In this document: positions 2,394 through 63,721 of the stretch, in pieces
Numbering within the stretch: position 1 is the stretch's first letter
How the letters are laid out: the number at the start of each line of letters is the position of its first letter
Source: Hyaloraphidium curvatum
Taxonomy: Eukaryota > Monoblepharomycota > Hyaloraphidiomycetes > Hyaloraphidiales > Hyaloraphidiaceae
Direction: 5' to 3'
Assembly (NCBI GenBank): GCA_025558095.1
Contig: JAIVFI010000013.1
Coordinates: 682,001 to 746,000, forward strand
Length of the DNA: 64,000 nucleotides
Translations under genes and position numbers: made by a program
Notes under the pieces: model-generated
Database searches by the model: none
Told to the model about the DNA's origin: nothing
What the model saw: only the letters and a program-made list of their open reading frames with translations

Positions 2394-5300
2394 ATGGCCC
2401 TCCGCCGCATCCGCACCGTTGCCGCCCTCGCGGTGCTGCTCGGTTTGCTCCTCGCGGCGTCCGCGCTGCCCTCCGCCGCGGCGCCCGTGCGCCGCGCTAT
2501 CCAGCCGCCGTCGGGCACCGCGACCGTCGGCCTCGTCGCGGCGGGCTGCAACGGCTCCCCGGCGGCGCCGGCGTGCCCGCCCGGCAGCCTCGTGCGCGTC
2601 GCCGCGCTGACGTACGGCACGACCGCCGAAATCACCGGCGCCGGCCTGTGCGGCGGCCCGATCGCCCCGCCGACGCCGCCGTGCGCCCTGACGCCGCACG
2701 ACCAGGCCGCCGCCACCGCGCTGGCCGCGCAGCGCTGCGACGGCATGCAGGCCTGCTCCGTGGCGCCCGCGGACGTGCTCGCCCTGTTCGGCGACCCGTG
2801 CCTCGGCACCGCCAAGCTGCTGACCATCGGATACTCGTGTCTGGACGCCGTGCTGAGCCCGCCCACGCCGGCCACGCAGCCGCCGCCAGGCGACCTCTAT
2901 CTGCGCAGGCCGTCGGCCTTTGCCGCCCCCAAGTGCCCCGCATATGCCGCCGGCGTCGCCGCGGCCTCCGAGGCAGGCATCTTCTGGTCGAGCGTCGTCG
3001 CGGGCAGCGCCAGCTTCATCCGTGTGTCGGCCGTGTACGTCGATCTGAACGCGACGGACCTGCCCGGCCTGGTGCAGGCTGCGACCAAGGGCATCTTCAC
3101 CATCGACGACGTGGTCGAGCTCAACATCACCGCCGTCAACTTCCAGCTCCTGCCCGGCGCCGTCGTCGCCATCGGCAAAAACAACCCCGGGTTCACCCGC
3201 GTTCGGATCAGCGCCGTCAATGTCGTTGCCAGCAGCACGGGCGAGCTCGACGTGTACTCCCGCGGGCCGGATGCCTCAGGCCGTTTGGGACCTGACGTCG
3301 TTCTGTCTGCCGCGAACGTGTTCGGTGCCCTGCAGATTCGCCAGAACGGCCTCACTGCGCGTCACCCGCGCGTCTCGACGACTCCCCTGGTGGCTACCAT
3401 CCCGTTGTATTTCGACAGCGGAAACGCTGCCGACAAGGCGTCGCAGTGCGACGTGACGACATACTACACGGATCCTGGCTTGTTTGGCGAACTCCTGCCT
3501 GCCGACTGCGCGGGCGGGCAGCAGCCCTCGGATGACGTCTTCCAGCCTTACTGCAGGACAAACAACCTTGATGGCAGGAAGACGACGTGCATCTCTTTCT
3601 TGAACCCGAACGGTCCCGGCCAACCACCCACCTGGTGCCTTGCATTCCTTGCGAACGTCTCGGCATCTGCCTACTACGGAAACGCGATGCTGGCGACGAA
3701 GCAGAACGACTCGTGGCAGTTCGACGTAAACACGGACCGGTTTACATGGCCAGCTTATTATGTGCCCTGGGTGGACAACCTGTCGCTTCCGGCAAAGACG
3801 GTCCCACATGGTCGCGTGGCGACGTCGGCGGCGTACTTCTTCGATGAGACTGGCGATCCGAGCTCGTCCGCAGGGACAGCGACGTGGGGCACGAATCCTG
3901 CAGGGGTGTTTTCGACCGCCGACTGTGGGTTGTGGTTCACAAGGTGCGATCCGCAACTCACTGCCGTCTCTTTCGCAGATACGATTGCGCTCGCGACGTA
4001 TCCTTCGACCTCCTACCTCATGCGGCTCAGCCTGGCCTCCCAAACCCCCGACCTATCCTATTCGGGCCTCCTTGGGATCAGCGCGCGGTGGCAGCAGGCG
4101 AACCCGCCGCAGCCGTCCAACTGGTCGGACGTGATGGATGCGACGTGCTCGTGGCAGGGCGTACCCTACAGCGCTCTTCAGGGCTCCATCTCGCACACCC
4201 CCTCGGCCGCCTCCCCTTCGACGTTCCCGGGTCTGGACCCGACCGCGGCCCGCCTGGCTCTCAACTGCCTCGAGGAGATGGTCGCCGCCTCCCGCTTCGC
4301 CGACGCATCGGCCTTTGCCGCCGATCTCGCCCCGGCGTTCGGCCCCGGCTCGGGGTCCTCCCGCTCCCTCGGCGCCTCCCTCGCCCGCATCGCCGCCCGC
4401 ACCGCCGACCTCCGCACGGATCGCACCTCGCCGGCCGTCCGCACCGTGCCGTTCCTCTCCGGGACCACCATCGAAGGCGAGGCCGGCGCGGTGCTGGACT
4501 CGCTGGTCGCATCGGAGGCGGCGTTGGACGCGCTCATGCAGGAGGGGGTGGAGTACGAGACCGCCGTGGACGGGGTCGGGAGCACCGTGGCGGTTTTGGA
4601 CGCGCAGGTGTTGGCGGATGCGGATGCACTGCTCGCCGACGCGAAGTTTGTGGCCTCGATGGGCGCCGTGGCCGCGAAGCTCAACGCGACCTACCTGGAG
4701 GACATCGCGCGGAGCAACGCGACGCTCAAGGCGTTCGAGGCGGGGGTGAAGAAGAAGATATCGGAAGAGGTCGGCGAGGCAGTTTTTCAGCTCTTTGCCA
4801 GCGTCGTGGCGCTGGTAGTCGGCGACGTCGCGGCAATCGCCGGAATGGCGGCCGCTGCCGAGGGGGCGGTGGGCGGCGTCATCAAGGAGGCGGACAAGGT
4901 GGTCAGCTTGCTGAGCAACGTCGCCAACCTCGTCAACAGCATCTTCACGCTCATCAACGTGGGTGGCAGGGCGCGCGGGTACCGCCGCGGCTTTCTGACC
5001 TGGCGCCGGCAGAACATCCTGGTCTTCGTCAACCAGATCGAGAACCTCCCGGACAATCCCAACGTCTCCGTGACCCCGCAGCTTGCGAGCGGCTTCCAGA
5101 ACAACACCCAGGCCCTCGTCTCACTCTCCGTCGCCGCGCTCAACTTCAAGGACCTGCACGACGAAGTGTTCATCGCGCTCAGTCCCGCCATCGCAATGGG
5201 CATCGACAATGCAACCGACTACGCCGAAGCTCTCGCCTCGGTCGCCAACAGCGGCTTCGACTGGGCCCAGGCCCAGATCCAGCTCCTCTCGGCGCAGACA

Positions 5301-6261
5301 AAGTACGTGCAGGACGGGCTCAAGCTGCAGGCGGCACAGGCGCAGCGCGACAAGGTTGCGACGGTGCTGGCGAGGCTCCGGGCCCAGGAGGGCTCGCTCG
5401 ACCTGCCCGCGGCCGTGACGGAGGGGTATCTGGACCTGCTGGACGGCAAGATGCGCGCCTTGGAGCTGTTCGACCAGGCTTGCGACGCCTACTCGTTCGC
5501 CTACACGGCGGAGTGCCCCCTGCGCGCGTCGGGCATGGCGCCGAACCCGACCTCGCCGGCAGCCGTGTTCAAGGCTGCGGTGCAGGGGTCCCTGGCGAGC
5601 CTGGACGACGTGTTTCACGGGTCGAGCTGCTTTTGCAACGCGAGCTTCGTGGTCACGGATCCGGGTTTCATCGGCAACCTGACGGCCCGCCAAGGAGAGG
5701 CGGTGCTGGACCTGAGCGACATCACAAACCCGCAGCTGTTCAACTTCTTCGGGCCTTTCGACGACGTTCACATTTACCAGCTCAACGTGGGTGCCGGAAA
5801 CGTGATGTTGCAGCGGCATGTGATGACGCGGAATACCCCGCCAGTTGAAGCCGTACGGCATCGTCCCGATCGATCCCCCGCCGGACACCACACCCACCCT
5901 GACCCTGGACATCCGCCCGGTGGGCCTCTTCACCAACACCTTCTCCTACTCCGGCGGCTGGTACGAGCGCCAGTTTCTCGCGCGCCCGTATGGCATTTCA
6001 GTCCAGATGGAGCCCACCAACGCGTGGACGGTGATTACGCCCGGCACCCTCTCGGGGCTCGAGGCGGGCAAGGTGTACGCGCCGTCGCCTTACGCTCGGT
6101 GGTCGGTCCGGGAGAGCAAGGAGGGTGTGGCGTGGGACTGGGGCGGGGTGTGGGGCGTGCAGGTGGAGATGTGGGGGAAGCACGCGAAGAGGCACTCGCT
6201 CAGCACGGGAGGGGCAGCGCCACCGTCTGCGCTTCAGTACTGCGGGTGCCCTGGGTCATAA
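2394..6261 (+). CDS. Large secreted protein with SUEL-type lectin module
   Basis: Exons 2394-5786 and 5845-6261, about 1269 residues. The intron starts GTGGGT and ends CCGCCAG. Residues 1-30 form a signal peptide (basic MALRRIR, then a Leu/Ala core). About residues 40-155 have the cysteine and FGDPC..GTAKLL..GYSC pattern of galactose/rhamnose-binding SUEL lectins. The middle (about 170-640) is a Cys-containing extracellular region of unknown fold with repeated ASN-x-Ser/Thr sites. Residues about 660-1060 are mostly helical, with hydrophobic stretches near 795-835 that could be amphipathic or membrane-associated. The C-terminal exon adds a beta-rich domain. It is probably exported and sugar binding; the rest is unassigned. 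The 5' end lies 230 bp past the MYND relic and has no visible partner gene. Confidence 0.7.
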
Positions 6262-6540
6262 AGGCCTCGGGAAGGCAAAGGCGGGAATGTCGCCCGCGGT
6301 GTGGTGTTGTAGAACGCCAGCGTGCAGTAGACCCGCTCGTGCATTGAACATGCGCTCAAAGGTGCTGTATCTGACGGATAGTTCCTCCAGACAGCCCCTG
6401 CACTGTCCATGAAAAGACGAAAGATCCGGACTAGAGCAGGCACCAGAGTTGGGCGATCGGTATCTGCGCGAAGGAATCCCAAAATCGCCACCCCCGGAAG
6501 CGTCCTCGATCAAAGCGAGCGGCACTTTTCCCCCCTAATC

Positions 6541-7577: not shown

Positions 7578-8520
7578 TCATTTGCTACCCTTTGAAAACA
7601 CGTCGGCGCCAAAGGCAAGCAGAGCCGCGTCGAATTCGGTCGGCCTTTCCCACATCGGTGAGTGTCCGGCACCTTCGATGGCGACGACGCGGTGCTGCCA
7701 CGCCGTGGGCATGCCGCCCACGACGGACTCGAGAAACTCGGACTTGACGAGCTTTTCCTTGGCACCGTGCATGAGCAGGAACGGGACCTTTGTCGAGGCC
7801 AGAATCGCGAGCTCGTCGTCCTCCGAGGTAGGAATGGACGCCGATAGCACCCGGGCAAAGTTGGGGTCACGGCGAAGGCAGTCCCGAACAGCCCACTGGC
7901 AACGACCGGCTGTGAGCGGTTCGTCTGAAGCGGAACTCCCGCTTGCGTACCTCTTCGATTGGGGTTCCTTCAGCGTACTGGCCCCTTGCCCGGGCCTCGG
8001 CTTCCTCCCGCGTGTACTTTTCCGGCTTGAACAAGACGCCCATGTTGGGGTCGTTCATGTCGAATCTGACGGAAAAATCCATAGCCTTGTCCAAGGGGGG
8101 CGTGCCCACGCACCCGGCGCCCGCGAGAGCCATCTTCGGCAGCGCCCGGATCACAATGTGGCCGCCCAAAGAGTGACCAAACACAATCGTCTGCTGCGGG
8201 TCCAGGCCGAGGGCAGGGATCAGCGCGGCCAGCCAGTCGCGGAACCCCCCGAGGGAATAAACCGCGTCCGGCCCGTCCGGAGAGTCGCCGTGGCCAGGCA
8301 GATCGGGAGCGTAGACGTTGAACTTTTGGGCTAACGCAGACAAGTCCTTGTCCAGCTGTTTGGAAAACAGCTTCGCCGACAGCGAGTTGCCGTGTATCAG
8401 GACGACGTTGGGGCGACCGGCGGCGTTCGACGGGGCTTCGAAAACAGCGATTCGAACGACTGTCGCATCGTCCAGAGGGACTTCCACAAAGCGCGGCGTC
8501 GGCATCGGTGGGGTAGCCAT
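7578..8520 (-). CDS. Alpha/beta hydrolase
   Basis: Exons 8520-7951 and 7895-7578, 295 residues. The 55-nt intron starts GTACGC and ends GCCAG, in phase 0. Family marks are an oxyanion-type HGNSLSA (about 43-49), LPGHGDS (74-80), the nucleophile elbow GHSLGGH with Ser117, and the catalytic His268 in GAGHSPMWERP. The acid is likely in the preceding exon-2 strand region. Length and order fit a soluble esterase/epoxide-hydrolase-type enzyme; the substrate is unknown. The gene diverges from the asparaginase-like gene with about 100 bp between start codons, so the two probably share a promoter region. The ATG at 8520 is followed directly by the first beta strand (FVEVPL). Confidence 0.85.
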
Positions 8521-8620
8521 GCTTGATCCCCGGCGAGTGTCTCCCGGACGGGTCCCCAAAGGGTTGGCCGCGTCCCGCCACCGCCACGAATCGAATCGCT
8601 CGGTTCTTGATTATCCGCGA

Positions 8621-9664
8621 ATGCCGGGCAGCCGCGACGCGTCTCCTCCCGCCGGCCGCCTCCGCGTGGACTCGCTGCGCGCCGGCCTCGTCGAGAGCGC
8701 GCACGACGTGACCGTGGCCGTCGTCGACGCGTCGGGCCGCCTCATCGCATCTTCCAACGATCCGTCGCTGAAAACCTTCTGGCGCTCGAGCTGCAAGTTC
8801 TTCCAGGCTATGCCTATGGTCGAGGCCGGCGCCGCAGACCGTTTCGGTCTCTCGCAGGCCGCCCTCGCGCTCGCGTGCGCATCGCACTCCTCCGAGCGCG
8901 AACACCTGGAGGTCTGCGACGAAATGCTCGCCGCTTGTGGCTGCCGGGACTCGGACCTTGCCTGTGGGCCGCACGTGCCGCTGGCCCCGGACGTGGCCGA
9001 AAAGGTCGCCGGCGAAGGCATCAACCTTACGCCGAGGTGGTCAAACTGCTCAGGCAAGCACGCGGCTATGCTTGCTTATTGCAGGCACGTTGGGTGGCCC
9101 GTGGAAGGGTACGAATTGCCGGACCACCCGTTGCAGCAGCGCTTGCTGGACGAGGTCGCCGAATGGACCAGTATCCCGCGCGACGAACTCCCCATCGGGG
9201 TGGATGGTTGCGCTCTGCCGACCTACTTTCTCCCGGTTCGGGCCATGGCACTCGCTTATGCGAGGTTCGGTGCGTCGTCGCTCCCTCAAGCCGTGCGCCT
9301 CCGCAACGCCGTCGCAGCCCACCCGCTCATGATTGCCGGGCGCAACAGACTCTGCACGGATCTTGCGGCCGCGAGCAAAGGTGCCGTGCTGGCCAAGATC
9401 GGTGCGGAAGGACTCTACGGCGCGACGATACCTTCCGCCGGCCTCGGCATCGCGCTCAAGATCAACGACGGTGATTTCCGGTGTGCGCCCGTTGCCCTCG
9501 TGGCTGTTTTGAAGGCGCTCGCTGATCGTGGTACTGTCGACGGGCTCGCGGAAATCGTGGCCCACCCGGAGGTGGCCAAGTACGCCGAGATTCCGCTGCC
9601 CAATACCCGTGGGTTTGCAGCAGGAGCACTCCTATCCTCTGGGACTCTGAGATTCGAGAGCTGA
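8621..9664 (+). CDS. L-asparaginase II-type protein
   Basis: Single exon, 347 residues. It matches the asparaginase II family of bacteria and fungi (a family separate from EcA-type asparaginases): an N-terminal RAGLVESAHDVTVAVVD strand pair, SSCKFFQAMP, then CASHSSEREHLE, NCSGKHAAMLAYC, GVDGCALPTYFLPV and a C-terminal AAHPLMIAGRNR..TDL segment. The expected reaction is hydrolysis of L-asparagine to aspartate and ammonia in the cytosol, but substrate preference in fungal members is poorly known. The ATG at 8621 lies close to the first conserved segment; an upstream in-frame extension is low-complexity and overlaps the divergent hydrolase, so it was not used. Confidence 0.85.
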   Translation: MPGSRDASPPAGRLRVDSLRAGLVESAHDVTVAVVDASGRLIASSNDPSLKTFWRSSCKFFQAMPMVEAGAADRFGLSQAALALACASHSSEREHLEVCDEMLAACGCRDSDLACGPHVPLAPDVAEKVAGEGINLTPRWSNCSGKHAAMLAYCRHVGWPVEGYELPDHPLQQRLLDEVAEWTSIPRDELPIGVDGCALPTYFLPVRAMALAYARFGASSLPQAVRLRNAVAAHPLMIAGRNRLCTDLAAASKGAVLAKIGAEGLYGATIPSAGLGIALKINDGDFRCAPVALVAVLKALADRGTVDGLAEIVAHPEVAKYAEIPLPNTRGFAAGALLSSGTLRFES

Positions 9665-37058: not shown

Positions 37059-40000
37059 ATGCCGTCGACTTTGGGCGCCGAGACCTTCGTGGTCATCCTC
37101 ATGTCGGCCCTGACCTCCATCCCCGGCATGTGGACCGTCCTGAACGCCGTGGTGCCGGACAGCAAGGACTCGCTCTTCCTGCGGCGGCTGAAGGTCTACA
37201 ACACGGCCATCAACGCCTTTTTGCGGGTCCGGTATGCCCAGTGGAAGACCAAAGGGCTGGCGGACGACGACCCGAAGTCCATGAAGATCTGGGAGGCGAC
37301 GCACCGCAGGAATGCCGACGATTTCTACAGCGTCGGCACGTCTCTGGAGGGCGTGTGGATCAAGGCCGGTCAGGTGGGTTGGCCGGAGACCTGTCCGGCT
37401 TCTACTTCTGGAGCTGACTCCGATTCGCGTCCCGCAGTACATGAGCACTCGTGCTGACGTCCTTCCGCTGCCCTACATCGAGAAGCTCCGCCCTCTCACC
37501 GACTCGCTTCCCCCCAAGCCGTTCGAAGAGGTCGAGCAGACCATCCTCGAGGACATGGGTGTCAACTCCCTCTCCCAGGCCTTCGCTTCCGTGGACCGCA
37601 CCCCCCTCGCCACGGCTTCGATAGCCCAGGTCCACCGCGCGGTCCTGCTCGACGGCACCCAGGCGGTGGTCAAGGTGCAGCACCGCAACGTGGCGGACAA
37701 GATCCGGCAGGATCTGCGCAACCTTTCCCACATCGTGGAGCTTGTGGCGCGGTACGAGCCCGAGTGGGACCTGCGGCCGGTGCTGGACGAGTGGGCGAGG
37801 GAGTTGCCGGCGGAGCTGGACTTTAGGAAGGAAGCGGCCAACATGAAGGAGGTCGAGGACTCGATCAACGAGTTCCAGGCGTCGCTCGCGAAGCTGGACG
37901 AGCTGCCGGCGCTGTGGAAGGAGCTCGGCCTGACCAAGGACTTGCTGCGGTTCTCAGTGCGGCTGCCGAAAGTCGTGCCGGACTTTGTCAAGGAGAAGGT
38001 CCTGGTGCTCGAATACGTCGACGGCTTCCGGCTCAGCGAGGTCAACAAGATGAAGGCCGCCGGCGTGGACCTCGACCAGATCAGTCGCGCCATCACCCAC
38101 AGCTACGGATATCAAATCTTCACCACTGGGTGAGGCGTCGGCATGTCTCACATCGCGGAACCGTCGCTGATTCCTGCTTGCCAGGATCTACAATGCCGAC
38201 CCGCACGCAGGCAACTTCCTCGTCGCGCCGACGGACCCCACCCGCCCCGCCCACCCCGTCGATAACCCGTACCAGGCCGTCCTCCTCGACTTTGGTCTCA
38301 CCAAGCACCTCACCTCCTCGGAACGCCTCGGCCTCTCGCGCATGCTCATCTCGGCGTCCGAGGTGGACTACGCCGGCCTGCTCTCGTCGCTCGAGGAGAT
38401 CGGACTGAAGCTCAACATTGATGAGCCCCAGGCCAGCATGGACGTGGTGCGGTTCCTCTTCCGGCGCGGCGAATCCCGGGAGGAATCGATGGAGACCAAC
38501 AAGCAGAAGCGGGAGGAGTGGGAAAAGGCGGACGAGGAGAGAAAGCGCAGGGAAAAGGAGCGCGGCGCGCCCCGGCGCAAGCTACTGGACGCCTTCCCCT
38601 CGTGCCTGATCCTGTTCGGCCGGGTGCTCAACCTGCTCCGCGGCGTGAGCACGGGGCTAGGGGCCAAGGAGAACTATCTCGAGGGCCTGAGCCCGTTCGC
38701 CAAGGTCGGCCTGGTGGGCGACTTTGAGTCCTCCGCGGCCGAGGAAACCCGCGGAACCGGCGCGGTGTGGGATACGGTCTCGCGGCTCCGCGAAGAGCGC
38801 CACATTCTCGGCGTGCAGGTCTCGGTGCGCAAGGCCGGCGCCGAGGTGCCCTCGCTGAGCGCCGTCGCGGGCCACATGGGCCGGTTCGACCCCCGCCCGT
38901 ACGCAAAGGACACTTTGACCAACGTCTACTCTGCCACCAAGCCCGTCGTCGCGCTGGCGATCCACTTGCTCGTCGCCGAGGGCAAGTGCGGGTACGACGA
39001 TCCCGTGGTGCGGTACTGGCCCTCGTACGCTCGCGAGGGCACGGCCAAGTCGCGAACGACGATCCGAGACGTGCTGGAACACCGCGCGGGGATGCAGGAC
39101 GCGGCAACGAGGGAGATTGCGCTGGACGCCTTCATCATGCGGGACTGGGACAAGATGATGAAGCTGATGGAGGAGGCCGAGCCGGATCCGGAGCCTGGGA
39201 CCGAGACGCGTTACCACTACTTCTCGTACGCCTGGCTCGCGGGCGGCCTGGTTCAGAAGGTCGCGGGCAAGCCGTGCATGGACTACATCCGCGAGAGGAT
39301 CTTTGTCCCCCTGGGCTACTCGACGCCCGAGACGTCGCACATGTTCATCGGCATCCCGTCGAAAGTGGTCGACACGAGGCTGGCGAGCGTGGTCTGGGAC
39401 CTGCACGAGGTGCGGGCGATGTTCTCGCGCGCGGCGGTGGAGGAGGGGGAGGAAGTGGCGGACGGCGAGCGTAACGACAGCGGGTTCGGCGTCGGGTCGA
39501 TCGAGGACCTCGTCGAGCGGACCGAGGACTCGGCGGAGAATGGAGTCGCCAACGGAGCCCCCGCCCCGGAGGCCGCCCCGGGCGCACCCGCCACGCCCAA
39601 GAAGTTCGACCTCCGCGAAGCACTGCGCTCCGACCCCCGCATGCAGGCTGCCCTGCTGACATCCAACCCGACCCTGTTCAACCACCTCTTCCTGCGCCGC
39701 GCCGTGATTCCATCGGCGAACGGGCACTTTTCCGCGCACGGACTGTCGGCCTTCCACGCCGAAATTGCGGCAGCGTGGAGCGGCAAATCGAAGATCGTGG
39801 GCCTTGACAAAGCCCGGGTGGGGAAGATGGCCTGGGGCGCGTCGGGGACCGGCTTGACTTCGGTCGAGAGGGAGCTCGCCGACCCGGCGACGGGTGTGCC
39901 GCCGTTCAAGTACCGCGTCACGCTGTCGCAGCTGGCTCGGATCGGGAAGGAGGTTGGGCAGCAGCTCGTGGGAGGTGGACTGATGCGGTATCTGTTCGTG

Positions 40001-40297
40001 CGGCCCCTCGGAGATGCCGAGCGCGCGGGCGGCGAGTCTCACGAGGTGACCGTGGGCATCGGCCACGCCGGGTTCGGCGGCTCCGTCGGGCTGGCGCTGC
40101 CGAGTGAGGACGCCTCGGTCGCGATCGTGGTGAACAAGCTGGATGTGCGCGGGGGAGTGACGAGGGAGCTGCTGGACGCGGTGGCGGGGGAGCTGGGAAT
40201 CGGGAGGGCGGCGCAGTTCGGTGCGGTGCTGGATGGAGCGGAAGGCGGCGAGGGAGCGGTGAACGCGGAGCTGAACCCGTTCGGGAGGATGATTTGA
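37059..40297 (+). CDS. ABC1 atypical kinase fused to beta-lactamase domain
   Basis: Exons 37059-37373, 37438-38129, 38185-40297; 1039 residues. The introns start GTGGGT (64 nt) and GTGAGG (55 nt). The N-terminal ABC1/ADCK/UbiB kinase has the K-x-GQ motif (WIKAGQ) split by intron 1, STRADVLPLPYIEKL, the Ala-rich loop TPLATASIAQVHRAV, VVKVQHRNVADKI, and NADPHAGNFL, LLDFGLTKHL after intron 2. The linker is Lys/Glu rich. The C-terminal half is a serine beta-lactamase/esterase-like domain with YSATKP (Ser585, Lys588), FSYAWLAGGLVQKVAGK and a late GHAGFGGSVGLALPSE box replacing KTG. ABC1 kinases act in mitochondrial or plastid lipid and quinone metabolism. The fusion occurs in some fungi and algae. 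A separate ABC1 gene could not be excluded by transcripts, but the frame is continuous. Confidence 0.85.
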
Positions 40298-48782: not shown

Positions 48783-50003
48783 TCAACCAGCCGCAGCTCG
48801 ACATCGCCGGCCCTCGATCGCCGCCGCAACGTCGTGCAGCATCCCGAACGTCGCCATCTCCATCGCCTCGTCCTCGAACACGGGCCAGCTCGACAGCTTA
48901 ACCGCCACCATCCGGTGCCTCCAGTTGATCCAGATCAGCTGTCCGAAGATCCCAACGCACATGAGCGTCCGGTCTCCGTCGTCCTCGATCCAGAACTGGT
49001 TCTTGTAGGAGGCGGTCGGCAGCCCAGGCCAGTACTCGGGCCCGTGGTGCCCACCGTCCCGCGCGGCGTCGATCCACGCCTTCGGCACGACCGACCCGCC
49101 GCCGTCGAGCAGGAGCTGGCCGAACCGCGCGTAGTCCCGCAGGGTGGCGTTGAACCCGCCGCATGCCAGCGCGTAGCCGGCGGGGTCGACGGTGAAGCTC
49201 GCGCTCTCCTCGGCCCCGATCCTGCTCCAGATCTCGTCCGAGAGGAGCTGCGGCAGGCGCTTGCCCGAGACGTGCTCCAAGATGAAGGCGATCACGTCGG
49301 TCTCGATGGAGCGGTAGTCGAACGCGGAACCGTGCGGGCGGTCGAGCGTCCTGAGGCGGAGGACGAGCTCCCACATGTGCTCGGGAAAGTCTTTCGCGCC
49401 GGCCGGTCGAGGTTTCCAGCCGCACGCCACGTCCATCATGCCGACCTCGGAGTACGGATCCGAGTAGTCTTCGCTAAAATGCACGCCGCTGCGCATGTCG
49501 AGCAGGTCCTGCAACGTCGCACCCGCGTAGGCGGTCGCCTCCAGCTCGGGGAGGTAGTCCGTGACCAACCCCGACGGATCGAGCAACCCGCGCGAGGCGA
49601 GGATGCCGACGAGCGCGCCGACCATCGACTTCGACACCGACTCCGAAAGATGCGGCGTGCGCGGGCCCATGCCGTTCAGGTATCGCTCGTAGACGATCGT
49701 TCCTTCGTGCAGGACGACGAAGCCATCTGTGAACGTATCTTCCAGCAGCCCGTGGAGCGTCGTCCGAGCCCCGTCACATCCCGAAACCGGCAATTCATCG
49801 AGGTCAACTTCAGCACGCGGCAAGTGCCGCACGGGGCCGTCCCCGCGCCAGACTTCTGCCGTCGGGAGCAGTTCGCGGACGTGCTGGAAGGACCACCGGT
49901 TCCACGGCGCGCGATCCCACTCGGTGCGCGGGACGATCGGCTGCGGTGGAGCGACATGCTTGGCTTTCGGCAAGCGCGGGTCCACGGTGCCGCACGATGG
50001 CAT
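48783..50003 (-). CDS. Serine hydrolase, NylB/beta-lactamase family
   Basis: 406 residues, one exon, from the ATG at 50003. The S-x-x-K box is ESVSKSMVGALVG; the second box is DYRSIETDVIAFIL (Y-x-S). Other conserved parts are FTDGFVVLHEGTIVYERYLN, LLDMRSGVHFSEDYSDPYSE, GGFNATLRDYARFGQLLLDGG and KNQFWIEDDG. These fit 6-aminohexanoate-dimer hydrolase-type (NylB-like) members of the class C beta-lactamase fold, i.e. an esterase or amidase. The frame is open further upstream to 50150 with no ATG. It diverges from the MFS gene, about 145 bp away. Confidence 0.85.
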   Translation of the reverse strand: MPSCGTVDPRLPKAKHVAPPQPIVPRTEWDRAPWNRWSFQHVRELLPTAEVWRGDGPVRHLPRAEVDLDELPVSGCDGARTTLHGLLEDTFTDGFVVLHEGTIVYERYLNGMGPRTPHLSESVSKSMVGALVGILASRGLLDPSGLVTDYLPELEATAYAGATLQDLLDMRSGVHFSEDYSDPYSEVGMMDVACGWKPRPAGAKDFPEHMWELVLRLRTLDRPHGSAFDYRSIETDVIAFILEHVSGKRLPQLLSDEIWSRIGAEESASFTVDPAGYALACGGFNATLRDYARFGQLLLDGGGSVVPKAWIDAARDGGHHGPEYWPGLPTASYKNQFWIEDDGDRTLMCVGIFGQLIWINWRHRMVAVKLSSWPVFEDEAMEMATFGMLHDVAAAIEGRRCRAAAG

Positions 50004-50149
50004 GTCGGACGCGTGTTTTCCGAGCGCTGAGCGTACGCGGGTCCCCAGCTTTGGCAATCCCGCCCGGAAAGAACACCCCCCATCGCCGCATTCAGGTCTA
50101 CTCGCAGTGTCCTCCGCTGAGGACGCGCTATTTGCTCTCCTGATTGGCA

Positions 50150-51749
50150 ATGGCCGGTGGGGACGCGCCTCCCCTGCCCCATGGGCCTCCCCCGCCGCAC
50201 TGGCTCCTGCGGCGACCCGCGCCCAAGTTCCTGCGTTCCAAGCACTTTATGACCGCATGCTACTCGCTGGCGCTCTTCGTCGATGCCGCAGCTTTCGGCA
50301 TCGTCATCCCGATCCTGCCCAACCTCACCGTGGAGGGCGTGGACGGCGAGGTGCCGCTCTCGGAGACGGACGTCGGCGGGCTGTTCGCGGCCTACGCGGC
50401 GGGATACCTCGCGCCCTCGCCCTTCGTGGGCTTCTTCTCGGACAAATACCGGGTGCGCGTGGTGCCGATGTGCCTGGGCCTGGTGGCGCTGGCCGGGTCG
50501 TCGGTCCTTTTCGGGACCGCGTCGGGGCTCCCCGCGCTCTACGCCGCCCGCGTGCTGCAGGGCATTTCCTGCGCCGCCACGTGGACCGTGGCCGTCGCCG
50601 CGCTCGCGGACGTGTTCACATCGGACGAGCTCTCGGGCCCGTCGTCGATCGGCAAGGCCTGCAACACAATCGGGTTCCTGGTTGGCCCGGTGATGGGCGG
50701 CGGCGCGTACCAGATGGCCGGGCAGCTGGCGCCGTTTGCCATCCTCGCGGGGCTCGTGGGACTGGACCTGCTGCTGTGGCTGCTGCTGGACCTCGAGGGG
50801 GCCAAGCGGGACGCCGCCGTGGAGAGGCACCGCCGCAGGTCGAGGAAGAAGCCGCCGAGAGAGAGGGAGTCGGAGGGCGCGCTGCCCTCGGAGACCATCC
50901 AGATGCTGGGCAAAGGATCGCGGACAAAGGAGGACGAGGAGCGGGCCGCGTCGGAAGACGGGGACAGCGTCCTGTCGGACGATCTCGCGCTCGTGGCATC
51001 GCCGGACGACGAACCTGTCTCTGCCGTCGCGATTTTGAAGCTGTGGCTTCGACCTGAGGCGCTGCTCATCTTCTTCTCCTCTATGCTGTGCTCGATGCAG
51101 TTCGCGTGGGTTCCCGTCTGTCAATCTTGCCGCCCGCAGTCAACTGACGGGTCCCCGAACAATCAGAACCATAGAATCGGCCGGCTCGGTCGAACTAACC
51201 AACTCCTTCGACATGACCCCCGCCGCGGTCGGCGCCGTCTTCACCGCCCTCTTCCTCCCCAATGCCCTCGCCGGTCTCCTCATGGGCTTCATCCTCGACG
51301 CCTTCCCTCGGAGCCTGGTCCGGCGCCTCATTTCTGCCCTTGGCCTGGTGTTCTTCGGCGCCTCCTTTTGGCTCCTCAACACCGTTCGGCCCCCGACCTC
51401 GGGCTACCTCATGGCCCTCCCCGCCGCCGTCCTTGGCACCGCCGAGGCCGTATCGGACCTTCCCATATACGCCGAGATCGCAGCCATCGCCGACGCCCAC
51501 GGCCCCGGGACGGGGTACGGCACCCTGTATTCGGCATGGAACCTCTTCTACGGCGTGGGGATCCTGGTCGGGCCTGTGGCGGCGGGGTTCGCGGTGCAGC
51601 AGAGGGGGTTCGAGTTCATGGTGTGGGTGATCGGCGGGGTGACGGCCGCATTCGGGTTGGTGGCGGCTTCAGGGTTCACGGTGCTGCCCGAGGCGAACCC
51701 GAAGATCCAGGACGGAGCGGATGGGGCAGAGCGGGAGCTGGAGCGATGA
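50150..51749 (+). CDS. MFS transporter (VMAT/multidrug-like)
   Basis: Exons 50150-51105 and 51167-51749, 512 residues. The 61-nt intron starts GTGGGT and ends AATCAG and joins MQFA to TIESAGSVELT (phase 2). Transmembrane helix 1 is CYSLALFVDAAAFGIVIPIL. The motif-A loop between helices 2 and 3 is GFFSDKYRVRV, then ARVLQGISCAATWTVAVAAL (motif C-like region) and SIGKACNTIGFLVGPVMGGG. A long charged cytosolic loop of about 110 residues lies between helices 6 and 7. The second half has VGAVFTALFLPNALAGLLMG. Twelve hel spans are expected; substrates unknown, perhaps small amines or drugs. It is a plasma- or vacuole-membrane antiporter by family. Confidence 0.85.
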
Positions 51750-58849: not shown

Positions 58850-61791
58850 ATGGCGCGGAGCTTGCCGGCACTGATGCGAGGGGTGTTGCTTGCGGTGCTG
58901 TTTGCGGCGGCGCTGGCGGGGCTGGCTGCGCCCGGGAGGGCGGGAGCGACAACGGGCGCGTTGGCACCGGCGGGGCGGGCTGCGGAGGTCCTGCCCCTCG
59001 TCGGCGACGTGGGTTCGCGGGTCGGAGGTGGGCTCAATGTCCTTCCTGGGATCGTTTCACGGGAGAGGGCTCACTGGGCCCTGTACCGCAGAGGCCGCGG
59101 AGCCGGAAGCGCACCTTGGTCGGCGCCAGCTTGTCGTCAGGAAGTCGACCAAGCGCCGGCGCACGACGACCAAGCGGCGAAAGACGACGACCCGCAAGAA
59201 GCGGCGGACGACGACGAAGCGACGGCGGACGACCGCGAAGGTCCGGGCGACGACGAAGAAGGTGGTGTGCCGCGCCGGTGCCGCCCCTCTCGCTGCTGAC
59301 GTGCTCGCCAGATTCTTGCCCTCGAGACCGAGGTCGTTGCTCCGCCGTCCCCGTCCCCACCACCGCCTCCGCCACCCACGTCACCCCCGGCCCCGCCGCG
59401 CCAGACGACAACCCCGATCGCACACACCCCGCTTACGACCGCCCGGCCCCTGCCCCCCCCTCCTCCACCACCAACCACCTCGAAGGCAGCACATACGTCC
59501 ACCCGCACAGCTACCACCACAAAGACCCTGACGCGGACGACCTCAAGCACCACCTCGCCAAAAAAGTCCGCCCCCCCTGCGACCGCCCTGCGCCGCTCCT
59601 TCCCCATGGGCCTCAACCCCAAGCCCGACGACCCGCTGTACCGCCGCGCATCCAACCGCTCCACCGGCTCGGCGCTCTTCTACCACAACGCCGTGGTCAA
59701 CCTCAAAGCATTGGTCGACGCCGCGCTGCCCCGCCCCGCCGCCGACGCGCTGCCCGGCGAGCCGGCACCGGGGCCGGGGGACTGGCAGCGCCTCCTCGAC
59801 AACGCATCCAACCGCGCGAGGGTCAAAGCGCTCCTCGACTCGCTGTCGTCCCCGGGCGGCGCACGCAACCGCCGCCGCCAGGCAAACAGGGTGCTCCCCT
59901 ACGCGCACTCCATCTCGCGGCAGCTGGAGCAGGCCCCGCTGCCGCTGCGATACGACATGCGCGAGGGGACGTACCCCAAGCTAACGCCGGTCAAGGACCA
60001 GGGCGGGTGCGGGGCCAACGTGGCGTTCTCGGCCATGGCGGCGCTCGAGAGCACGGTGCTGGTCAAGAGCAAGGGGAAGCTCGCGGATGGGCCGCCCGGA
60101 GGTGCGTTCAACGCCTTTATGCCAGGGGTTTGACGTGCTGACGGCGCCGCGCCGTGGCAGAAAACACCTTCCCCGACTTCTCCGAGGCCCACGCGTACTT
60201 CTGCGACTGGTCCCAGTCCTGCGAGGGCGGCTACGACCTCCCCGGCGCCGCGGAGATGATCGAGCGCTGGGGCGCCACCTACGAGGAGTGCATACCCTAC
60301 ACGGGCGCGCGCCCGGCGGGAAACGGGTGCGCGACCTTCTGTCACGTCAACAGGGGCACTTTCAGGGTGGCGAGGCTGGGGACCTCGGTGGAGGCGATCA
60401 AGCGGCACGTGTTCAACCTCGGCGCGGTCCAGACCACGTTTGCGCTCTGTGCGTCCCCGCGTTCCGCGCTGCAACGACGACCGCGCTGACCCGCCTCCGC
60501 TGCAGACCCCGACTGGCTCGAATGGTTCACTGGCCCCGCCTGCGCCGGCACCGTCTGGACCCCGCCCCCCTCTCGCCCCCCCGACGCCATGCCCTACGCC
60601 GGTCACGCCGTCGCCGTGGTCGGGTGGGAGGAAGACGGCACGGGCAACGGCTTCTGGCTCGTCCGCAATTCCTGGGGGCCGGCGTGGTGCGACGGGGGGT
60701 ACTTCCGGATCGCCTACGGCGCCGACGGGTTCGCGGGGGAGGAGGCGCAGGGGTTCCTCTGGGAGCCGCCGGAGGGGGACTGCGAGGGGGCGGGGATGGA
60801 GCGGTGCGGGGACGGGAGCTGCGCCGATACCCTGGAGGCGTGCCCCGTGGCGAGGGAGGAGTGTGCGGGAGGGATGGTGCGGTGCCCCGAGGGCGGGCGA
60901 TGTGCGGGGTCGATCGCCGAGTGCTCCTCGACGTGCCCGGACGGCGGGGTGCGGTGCTGGGACGGCGCGTGCGCAGAGGACCACCTCTCGTGCGCGGGCG
61001 GCGAGTTCCCGCAGAACCCGAACTGCACGGCGCTGGGGCTGTTCACGTGCCTGGACGGGACGTGCAGGAACGCCAAGAAGTACTGCCCACCGTGCCCGGT
61101 TTTCGGATTGGTGGGGTGCGAGCGCGGCGGGTCGTGCTCGCGGAACGCGGACGAGTGCCCCAGCTGCGGCGCGATCAACCTGATTGGCTGCGGGGACGGC
61201 ACCTGCAGCACGACCACGGCCTCCTGCCCTGCAACCTGCGAGATGGAGGGCCTGTTTACGTGTCCGAACCTGCTGTGCAAGGAGATGCTCGGGCAGTGCG
61301 GCGGGTGCGAGGACGCTGGTCTGGCGACGTGCTACGACGGCTCGTGCGCGCAGGACGGGGACCACTGCCCGACCTGCGAGTCGCTGGGCAAGGTCGGCTG
61401 CCCTTCCGCGCGGTTCACCAAGATCTGCGCTGCGGCGTGGGAGCTCTGCCCTTCCGTGCAGGGATCGTGCGAGGACGCGGGGCTCGTGACGTGCCCCGAG
61501 GGCGGCGGATGCGAGGAGCGGCTGGACAAATGCCCCGTCAAGATGTGCGACGAGGCCCTGAGCCCCGTCAGCTGCGGCGGCGGGGTGTGCGTGGCGCGGC
61601 CCGAGGACTGCAAGGAGTTCGTGGAGAGCGTGGAGGAGTGGAGCTGCGAGAAGTACGGGTGGGCCACGTGCGCGGACGGGGCGTGCGCGCCGGAGGCGGG
61701 GGGTTGCGCGCCGGCGCCGACGTGCGAGAGCTTCCTGATGGTGACATGCCCGGACGGGCACTGCGAGTTTTCGGCGGAGCGGTGCCATTAG
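58850..61791 (+). CDS. Secreted papain-like pseudoprotease with Cys-rich repeats
   Basis: Exons 58850-59027, 59092-59261, 59312-60101, 60161-60448, 60506-61791; 903 residues. Signal peptide MARSLPALMRGVLLAVLFAA. Residues about 75-116 are a basic-Thr repeat (KRRRTTTKRRKTTTRKKRR). A Pro/Thr-rich linker follows, then a propeptide-like region and a C1 (papain) domain: YPKLTPVKDQGGCGANVAFS, CEGGYDLPGAAEM, GHAVAVVGW (His509), RNSWGPAWCDGGYF (Asn530). The active-site Cys is Asn352 (CGAN for CGSC), and Trp is Val, so the protein should not cleave peptides this way. The last 350 residues hold about a dozen C..DG.C..C-type repeats, LDLa-like, for extracellular binding. All splice phases fit. Confidence 0.8.
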
Positions 61792-62221: not shown

Positions 62222-63721
62222 ATGCGTATCGGGATCGCGCTACTGCTCGTCGCTCTCCTTGCGGGGGCGGGAACGGCCTCCGCCGATGCTCCCCGCCCCG
62301 CGCGGCCCACCGTCGTTCCTCCACTGGTCGAGGACGTCCCAATCGTCCCGCTCGGTGGACCTGGGATTGCTGCAAACGCAGCACCGACACCCGGCATCTT
62401 CGAGGTGTGATCCTGCCGGCGCGCGCCGCCGGAACCGCCACTGAACCCGCGTCAGCTCCGCCCCATCCCCATGGCCGCACCCAAGCCTGCCGCCGGCTTC
62501 TCCATGCAGGCGGCTGTATCGCCCAAAGCGCGCGCCGGAGCCTCGGCCGCCCGGGCCACGGTCGACTTCGACACGGCGCTGCCCGCGATCCACCTCGGCG
62601 TGGTGCCCGGCGGCGCCTCCTATGCGGAAGGCCCGGATGGCACGGTGATCACAATTCGCACGACGGCGAGGGCCAGGCAAGCCATCGGGAGCTGGCCGCA
62701 GTCGTTTATCGCCGTCCTGGAGGCCAAGGTGTGGCACGAGGCGCATCGATGAGTGAGGCTTCGCAGTTGACCTCTGTCCACCGGGCCGCAGAACATCACG
62801 TCACCAGACCAAGCTTTCCGCCTCGTCAAGTCCGTGCAGACAACACCATCCGGTAGCGTGCAGCTTCGTGCCGTCCCGATGGACCGTAGCCTCGTCCGCG
62901 GCGTCCGGGTGCGCTTCCAGCTCGGCGACGTCTCAAGCCGTGGCCCGGCGAACCTAACCAACGGCACCGGCAACGCGCTATCTCCCAACGCTGCGTGGAA
63001 CTGGGGCACCCGGCGGACGGTCTACTTCAACAACAGGCTCTCGGCGGGCGGGCTCTCGATCTCGTGCACCAACTGCTACGCCTCCTTCTCGGGTTCCTTC
63101 ATGGCCGACGTGTACTGGTCGTGGTTCTCCCTGCATGCCTGCGCCGCCATCCAGGCCTCGGCATCCGCCAACGTCGACGTGCGCGCCGACTTCCGCTCCG
63201 CCTCGGCCGACAGCGGGCGGCGCCGCCTAGCCCGCGCCAACCTTGGTAACTTCCGCATCATGGGCATCTTCGGGATCACCCCCTTCGTTTTCGTCGACGG
63301 CCAGGTCGTCGGCGGCCTCTCGTCGGGCTCCTCCATCTGGGCAACCTACGGATTCGACGCCTCGGCCACGGTCCGCGGCGCCGTCCGCCTTGCGGGGAAC
63401 AACGGCAACTGCGGGTCCTCCTACGCCAGCGCGAACTTCAGGAACCACGGATTCGGGTTCTCCTCCAACCGCGCGACGTGGTCGGGCTACGGCGAGTTCC
63501 GCGGGTACCCGGGCCTCGGCGCCGCGCTCGACGTGATCGGGTTCGGGGTGCTGGAGGGTACGGCGGGGCCGGAGCTCGACGCGGGGATCTACGGCTGGTC
63601 CGACGGCTCATGCAAGGGATCGAAAACGAGGCTGCAGCCGTACAGCGCCACCAAAATCGAGGTCATGGGGGGCGACATCTGGTCGTCCGGGTACAAGTAC
63701 GCATCGAGCAGGTGCTACTGA
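62222..63721 (+). CDS. Secreted protein, unknown
   Basis: Exons 62222-62404, 62456-62728, 62792-63721; 461 residues. Introns (51 and 63 nt) start GTGTGA and GTGTGG, phase 0. Signal peptide MRIGIALLLVALLAGAGTAS. A Pro-rich stretch and an Ala-rich segment precede a compact C-terminal domain with VRVRFQLGDVSS, SISCTNCYASFSGSFMADVY, FSLHACAAIQ, GNNGNCGSSYASANFRNHGF and SSGYKYASSRCY. Gly/Ser/Cys content and beta-pattern suggest an extracellular domain. No family recognised. It follows the pseudoprotease gene, but no functional link is shown. Confidence 0.6.

What the first reader, a model, noticed from the sequence alone, without database searches (positions are those of the whole stretch)
58850..61791. 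Papain-like protein whose catalytic Cys is Asn, fused to many Cys-rich repeats
Seen: the C1 motif reads DQGGCGANVAFS, so Cys25 is Asn and Trp26 is Val, while catalytic His (GHAVAVVGW) and Asn (NSWG) remain. Known: papain-type enzymes need the Cys; family members with Ser or Gly there (silicatein, TINAG) are inactive as proteases or have other roles. Inferred: a secreted pseudoenzyme that binds peptide or sugar ligands, with LDLa-like repeats for attachment.
Basis: partly seen in the sequence, partly recalled or inferred. Interest (0 to 1): 0.72.

Follow-up and report, generated by a model that had tools for sequence, protein, structure and literature searches.

The report
Fungal papain-like protein lacking catalytic cysteine
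An unidentified fungus carries a secreted relative of the protein-cutting enzyme papain in which the one residue needed for cutting has become asparagine, alongside an intact sister gene of the same build elsewhere in its genome, so it is probably a binding or regulating protein rather than an enzyme.

Summary
A five-exon gene (58850-61791, +) encodes a 904-residue protein: signal-peptide-like start, low-complexity linker, propeptide-like region, full papain domain (PF00112, E 3.6e-26) and Cys-rich tail. The papain nucleophile is Asn353 (AAC, 60017-60019); Gln19, His159, Asn175 and Trp177 equivalents remain. AAC is two bases from TGC, so one miscalled base cannot explain it.

The same fungal genome holds a second gene of the same architecture (contig C46) with CGSCVAF and intact His/Asn; the two are sisters (support 100/98) with near-equal branch lengths. 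Of 23 columns at least 95% conserved in 80 bacterial and archaeal relatives, the target departs at two: the nucleophile, and a Gly also lost in the C46 sister. Only the nucleophile loss is its own.

Corrections: Val26 is normal in this subfamily; the tail is 13 four-Cys repeats (C-x7-C-x4-C-x6-C), not LDLa.

Best explanation: a secreted papain-fold pseudoprotease that binds a peptide or protein in its kept cleft, perhaps regulating its active sister, as proposed for Plasmodium SERA5. Loss of cysteine-protease activity is very likely; the function is inferred. New variant of a known kind.

The parts
58850..61791 (+). whole gene, 5 exons, 904 aa: signal-peptide-like start - basic Thr/Lys/Arg and Pro/Thr linker - propeptide-like region - papain domain with Asn for Cys25 - 13 four-Cys repeats
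   Evidence: one open frame after removal of four GT-AG introns
58850..59027 (+). exon 1, with hydrophobic signal-peptide-like N-terminus (MARSLPALMRGVLLAVLFAAALAGLAAPGRAGA)
   Evidence: translation; signal peptide judged by eye, no predictor run
59092..59264 (+). exon 2, Lys/Arg/Thr-rich linker
59312..60101 (+). exon 3: Pro/Thr linker, propeptide-like region and N-terminal half of the papain domain
59591..59932 (+). propeptide-like region (residues 211-324), 34% identical to the C46 paralogue; no Pfam match
60017..60019 (+). codon AAC, Asn353, at the place of papain Cys25; Gln347 (oxyanion) and Cys350 (= Cys22) precede it
60161..60448 (+). exon 4, middle of the papain domain (FCDW..SCEGG, structural Cys kept)
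60506..61791 (+). exon 5, C-terminal half of the papain domain and the tail
60604..60606 (+). His510 = papain His159
60667..60669 (+). Asn531 = papain Asn175, in RNSWG
60772..61788 (+). Cys-rich tail: 13 repeats of about C-x7-C-x4-C-x6-C (52 Cys); matched elsewhere in the genome only at the C46 paralogue

Best explanation
A secreted papain-fold pseudoprotease. It arose by duplication of a cysteine protease of the same architecture; the active copy survives on contig C46. The nucleophile Cys25 became Asn while the rest of the catalytic machinery and the structural disulphide cysteines were kept. Shown here: the sequence, the gene model, the intact paralogue, and selective loss of the nucleophile. 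Inferred: the domain still folds and its cleft still binds a peptide or a protein (a substrate, the propeptide of its active sister, or a protease inhibitor) without cutting it, and so shields, titrates or regulates its active sister or an outside partner. The tail of tandem disulphide-rich repeats, also present on the active sister, probably sets where the protein sits or what it adheres to.
For: Nucleophile is Asn in a complete, intron-interrupted 904-codon frame. Full-length PF00112 match. Only two of 23 columns at least 95% conserved in 80 bacterial and archaeal relatives are changed: Cys25->Asn, and Gly->Cys at WCDGG, which the C46 paralogue shares; the target keeps 21, the intact paralogues 22 and 19. 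The C46 paralogue has the same order of parts with CGSCVAF, GGHAISIVGW and KNSW intact. The two are sisters, support 100/98, with near-equal branches 1.09 and 1.02, so the target has not evolved faster overall. Third-position G+C is 0.93 in the papain part and 0.92 in the tail. Precedents: Plasmodium SERA5, Ser at this place, shows no activity and has a non-enzymatic role (PMC4671257), and regulates egress (PMC5500368); aphid CathB9 has Asp there, and CathB3/6 keep their effect with the Cys mutated (PMC12266115).
Against: No expression, activity or binding data. Near-equal branch lengths do not prove constraint after the Cys was lost, since the loss may be recent. No second species could be checked for Asn353. 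That the partner is the C46 sister rests on analogy only.
Confidence: 0.6

Rival explanations
1. A recently disabled gene: the Cys was lost by chance and the gene is drifting towards a pseudogene with no function.
For: Only one copy in one genome could be seen, and the age of the loss is unknown. The adjacent conserved Ser24 is also changed, to Ala.
Against: The frame is intact over 904 codons and five exons, GC3 is high, and every other near-invariant residue is kept except one shared with the active paralogue. Two base changes were needed at the codon.
Confidence: 0.2
2. Sequence or assembly error: the real codon is Cys.
For: No reads were available to check.
Against: AAC differs from TGC and TGT by at least two bases, the neighbouring codon also differs (GCC, Ala for Ser), and the frame is intact on both sides.
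Confidence: 0.03
3. An active enzyme with a displaced or different chemistry: Cys350 (= Cys22) or Asn353 itself as nucleophile, the latter perhaps in self-cleavage as in asparagine peptide lyases.
For: His510, Asn531 and the oxyanion Gln are kept; Cys350 is three residues away.
Against: Cys350 is the conserved structural Cys22, whose usual disulphide partner (SCEGG) is kept. No papain-family member using Asn is known to me, and the literature searches found none.
Confidence: 0.05
4. A decoy secreted to soak up protease inhibitors (cystatin-like) or host and prey factors, protecting the active sister protease.
For: Active and inactive copies share propeptide, papain domain and tail, as a decoy would need; the cleft-lining catalytic neighbours are kept.
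Against: No inhibitor or partner was looked for or found. This is a special case of the best explanation, not separable with these data.
Confidence: 0.25

Closest known systems
C46 paralogue in the same genome (G000:C46, about 111.5-115 kb, - strand)
   Same: Same order of parts; papain domain 46% identical, propeptide-like region 34%; same four-Cys repeat, about 10 copies.
   Different: Cys at the nucleophile (CGSCVAF), so a complete catalytic triad; a longer Ser/Thr-rich linker; different introns; fewer repeats.
Plasmodium SERA5 (pseudoprotease of family C1)
   Same: Secreted papain domain with a non-Cys nucleophile; an active family member exists alongside it; reported non-enzymatic and regulatory (PMC4671257, PMC5500368).
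   Different: Ser instead of Asn; different flanking parts; unrelated organism; distinct subfamily.
Aphid CathB9 and other cathepsin B forms
   Same: A family member with the Cys replaced by an acidic or amide-type residue (Asp), in a family whose reported role does not need catalysis (PMC12266115).
   Different: Cathepsin B type, no Cys-rich repeat tail; CathB9 itself showed no effect in that study.
TINAG, silicatein, soybean P34 (from general knowledge; not examined here apart from a 'cathsilicatein' entry among the solved-structure hits)
   Same: Papain folds with Ser or Gly in place of Cys25 and other roles.
   Different: Different subfamilies and domain orders; none has Asn or this tail.
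Bacterial and archaeal secreted C1A peptidases with CGSCVAF and SEAHLF motifs (e.g. L029, L033, L037)
   Same: Closest outside relatives found, 28-35% identity, with the same Val26 and SEAH.F motif.
   Different: Cys kept in 79 of 80; no four-Cys repeat tail noticed in the parts read.

Membership tests
Papain family (Pfam PF00112, MEROPS C1A) | Sequence match over the whole domain | tested here: met
   93.1 bits against a cut-off of 20.7, profile 1-208 of 220
Papain family (Pfam PF00112, MEROPS C1A) | Catalytic Cys25 | tested here: not met
   Asn353, codon AAC; 79 of 80 outside relatives have Cys
Papain family (Pfam PF00112, MEROPS C1A) | Oxyanion Gln19, His159, Asn175, Trp177 | tested here: met
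   Gln347, His510, Asn531, Trp533 present
Papain family (Pfam PF00112, MEROPS C1A) | I29-type inhibitor propeptide | tested here: not met
   The region before the domain has no Pfam match, though it is alike in the C46 paralogue
Papain family (Pfam PF00112, MEROPS C1A) | Peptidase activity | not testable with these tools
   needs the purified protein
LDL-receptor class A repeat (PF00057) | Profile match | tested here: not met
   no hit at E <= 1 over the whole protein
LDL-receptor class A repeat (PF00057) | Six Cys per repeat and acidic calcium motif | tested here: not met
   four Cys per repeat, no DCxDGSDE
LDL-receptor class A repeat (PF00057) | Fold | tested here: inconclusive
   model of three repeats pLDDT 67, pTM 0.36; top structure hits are LDL-receptor-family entries but at E 4.9 and 6.2, not significant
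Papain-fold pseudoprotease (SERA5-like way of working) | Nucleophile lost, remaining fold and catalytic neighbours conserved | tested here: met
Papain-fold pseudoprotease (SERA5-like way of working) | Active paralogue of the same architecture in the genome | tested here: met
   contig C46
Papain-fold pseudoprotease (SERA5-like way of working) | Non-enzymatic function, ligand binding | not testable with these tools
   needs protein or knockout
Papain-fold pseudoprotease (SERA5-like way of working) | Substitution conserved among species | not tested
   no other fungal genome is held; the search for related loci covers prokaryotes and viral contigs only

The most novel reading that the evidence does not exclude
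Probability: 0.25. Interest if true: 0.6.

Novelty: new variant of a known kind. Interest (0 to 1): 0.42.

Why it matters
Papain-fold pseudoproteases are known from parasites, sponges, vertebrates, plants and aphids, but fungi are reported to have lost every ancestral C1A lineage and to hold only later acquisitions (PMC10380794). Here a fungus not only has such genes but seems to have made an active/inactive pair of one architecture, with an amide residue (Asn) at the nucleophile. The pair in one genome makes the question of how pseudoproteases work directly testable: delete each gene, compare, and measure binding of one to the other. The four-Cys repeat also appears to be an undescribed secreted module, at least in the libraries searched.

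Tried and rejected
Missed exon or splicing that restores Cys: rejected, the motif is inside one exon and no shift gives CGSC. Val26 as part of the loss: rejected. LDLa: rejected by profile and Cys count; structure model too weak to decide. Asn at the nucleophile in four viral-contig relatives (L117, L118, L123, L143): an alignment slip, their catalytic Cys is in SCT(A/G)N or GCTAN. Motif counts in 396 and 395 genomes of two phyla: too few matches, some at chance level, for a rate. Naming the organism: not achieved; fungal chitin synthase present, radial spoke and IFT46 families gave no match, but their controls were also silent. Literature for Cys-to-Asn papains: nothing found. The tree holds only prokaryotic outside rows, so it cannot show where the fungal genes came from; PARA_C2 and PARA_C18 are long branches whose places are unsure.

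Full report
Gene. The window is part of a 32-Mb assembly in 55 contigs. Two fungal-type chitin synthase matches and introns of about 50-60 bases fit a fungus; the species was not identified. The gene runs from 58850 to 61791 on the + strand in five exons with GT-AG introns and encodes 904 residues. Order of parts: a hydrophobic start that looks like a signal peptide (judged by eye), a Thr/Lys/Arg and Pro/Thr linker, a propeptide-like region without Pfam match, a papain domain (PF00112, 93 bits), and 13 repeats with four Cys each.

The substitution. DQGGCGANVAFS has Asn353 (AAC) six residues after the oxyanion Gln, where papain has Cys25. His510, Asn531 and Trp533 of the active site, and the structural Cys350 and its usual partner in SCEGG, are present. 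A Cys codon is two bases away and the neighbour codon (Ala for Ser) differs too, so a single error is excluded and splicing cannot restore it. Val26 is not a loss: the intact paralogues and many bacterial relatives have it.

Paralogues. PF00112 and protein searches of the genome give five papain-like loci: the target; a gene on C46 with the same order of parts, whose spliced model reads through with CGSCVAF, GGHAISIVGW and KNSW intact and about ten of the same repeats; a gene on C2 with CGSCVAY and a weak SUEL-lectin-like domain, below the Pfam cut-off; and two genes on C18 and C39 with the SSCTANA-type motif. The four-Cys repeats were matched only in the target and C46. The searches list best candidates only, so these counts are lower bounds.

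Constraint. Against 80 bacterial and archaeal relatives the tree puts target and C46 as sisters, 100/98, with branches 1.09 and 1.02. Of 23 columns at least 95% conserved in those relatives the target keeps 21, C46 22 and C2 19; the target's two departures are Cys25->Asn and a Gly->Cys it shares with C46. At looser thresholds target and paralogues are alike (33, 33 and 32 of 40). So the nucleophile was lost selectively. The timing of the loss is unknown, so this does not by itself prove constraint afterwards. Among the 80 relatives 79 have Cys; one, L030 (Kibdelosporangium aridum), has Ser. Apparent Asn in four viral-contig relatives was an alignment slip.

The tail. Consensus CExxGxVTCxDGxCAxxxxxC. 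It has the four-Cys half of an LDLa-like pattern but not the fifth and sixth Cys or the calcium motif, and no Pfam, NCBIfam or PDB sequence match. A model of three repeats is of low confidence (pLDDT 67) and its structure matches are not significant.

What it most likely does. Loss of ordinary cysteine-peptidase activity follows from the chemistry of the family (general knowledge). By analogy with SERA5, where the Ser form showed no activity yet the protein matters and affects the timing of egress (PMC4671257, PMC5500368), and aphid CathB proteins, whose reported effect does not need the Cys (PMC12266115), the likeliest role is non-catalytic binding, with the active sister, its propeptide, its substrates or its inhibitors as candidate partners. 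That step is inference.

Known context. [quoted passage not shown] The genes here resemble bacterial C1A proteins with SEAH.F motifs, in keeping with such a gain, but the tree has no eukaryotic outside rows and cannot show it. Verdict: a real papain-fold pseudoprotease candidate, a new variant of a known kind.

Noticed in passing
L007 (G000:C2:1190500-1197500), - strand, about 3110-4640: Papain-like gene with intact CGSCVAY motif followed by a weak SUEL-lectin-like domain (E 0.0017, below the Pfam cut-off): a different tail on the same enzyme type.
   Followed up: partly
2394-6347 (+): Large secreted-looking open frame (1317 aa) with a SUEL-lectin-like domain near its start (E 4.7e-6, slightly below cut-off).
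   Followed up: no
62226-63721 (+): Next gene downstream encodes another secreted-looking protein with a weak DUF7223 match (E 0.0017, below cut-off).
   Followed up: no
L030 1501-2115 (Kibdelosporangium aridum): Bacterial C1A relative with Ser in place of Cys25 (CGSSVSF) and the Cys63 partner region changed; another natural nucleophile loss.
   Followed up: partly
8318-9664 (+): Complete L-asparaginase II (PF06089, E 2.7e-103); origin not examined.
   Followed up: no
L005 (C18) and L028 (C39): Two further papain-like genes of another subgroup (QG..SSCTANA motif) with Cys present.
   Followed up: partly
38342-40297 (+) and 48783-50150 (-): Two beta-lactamase-fold (PF00144) genes 8-10 kb apart.
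   Followed up: no
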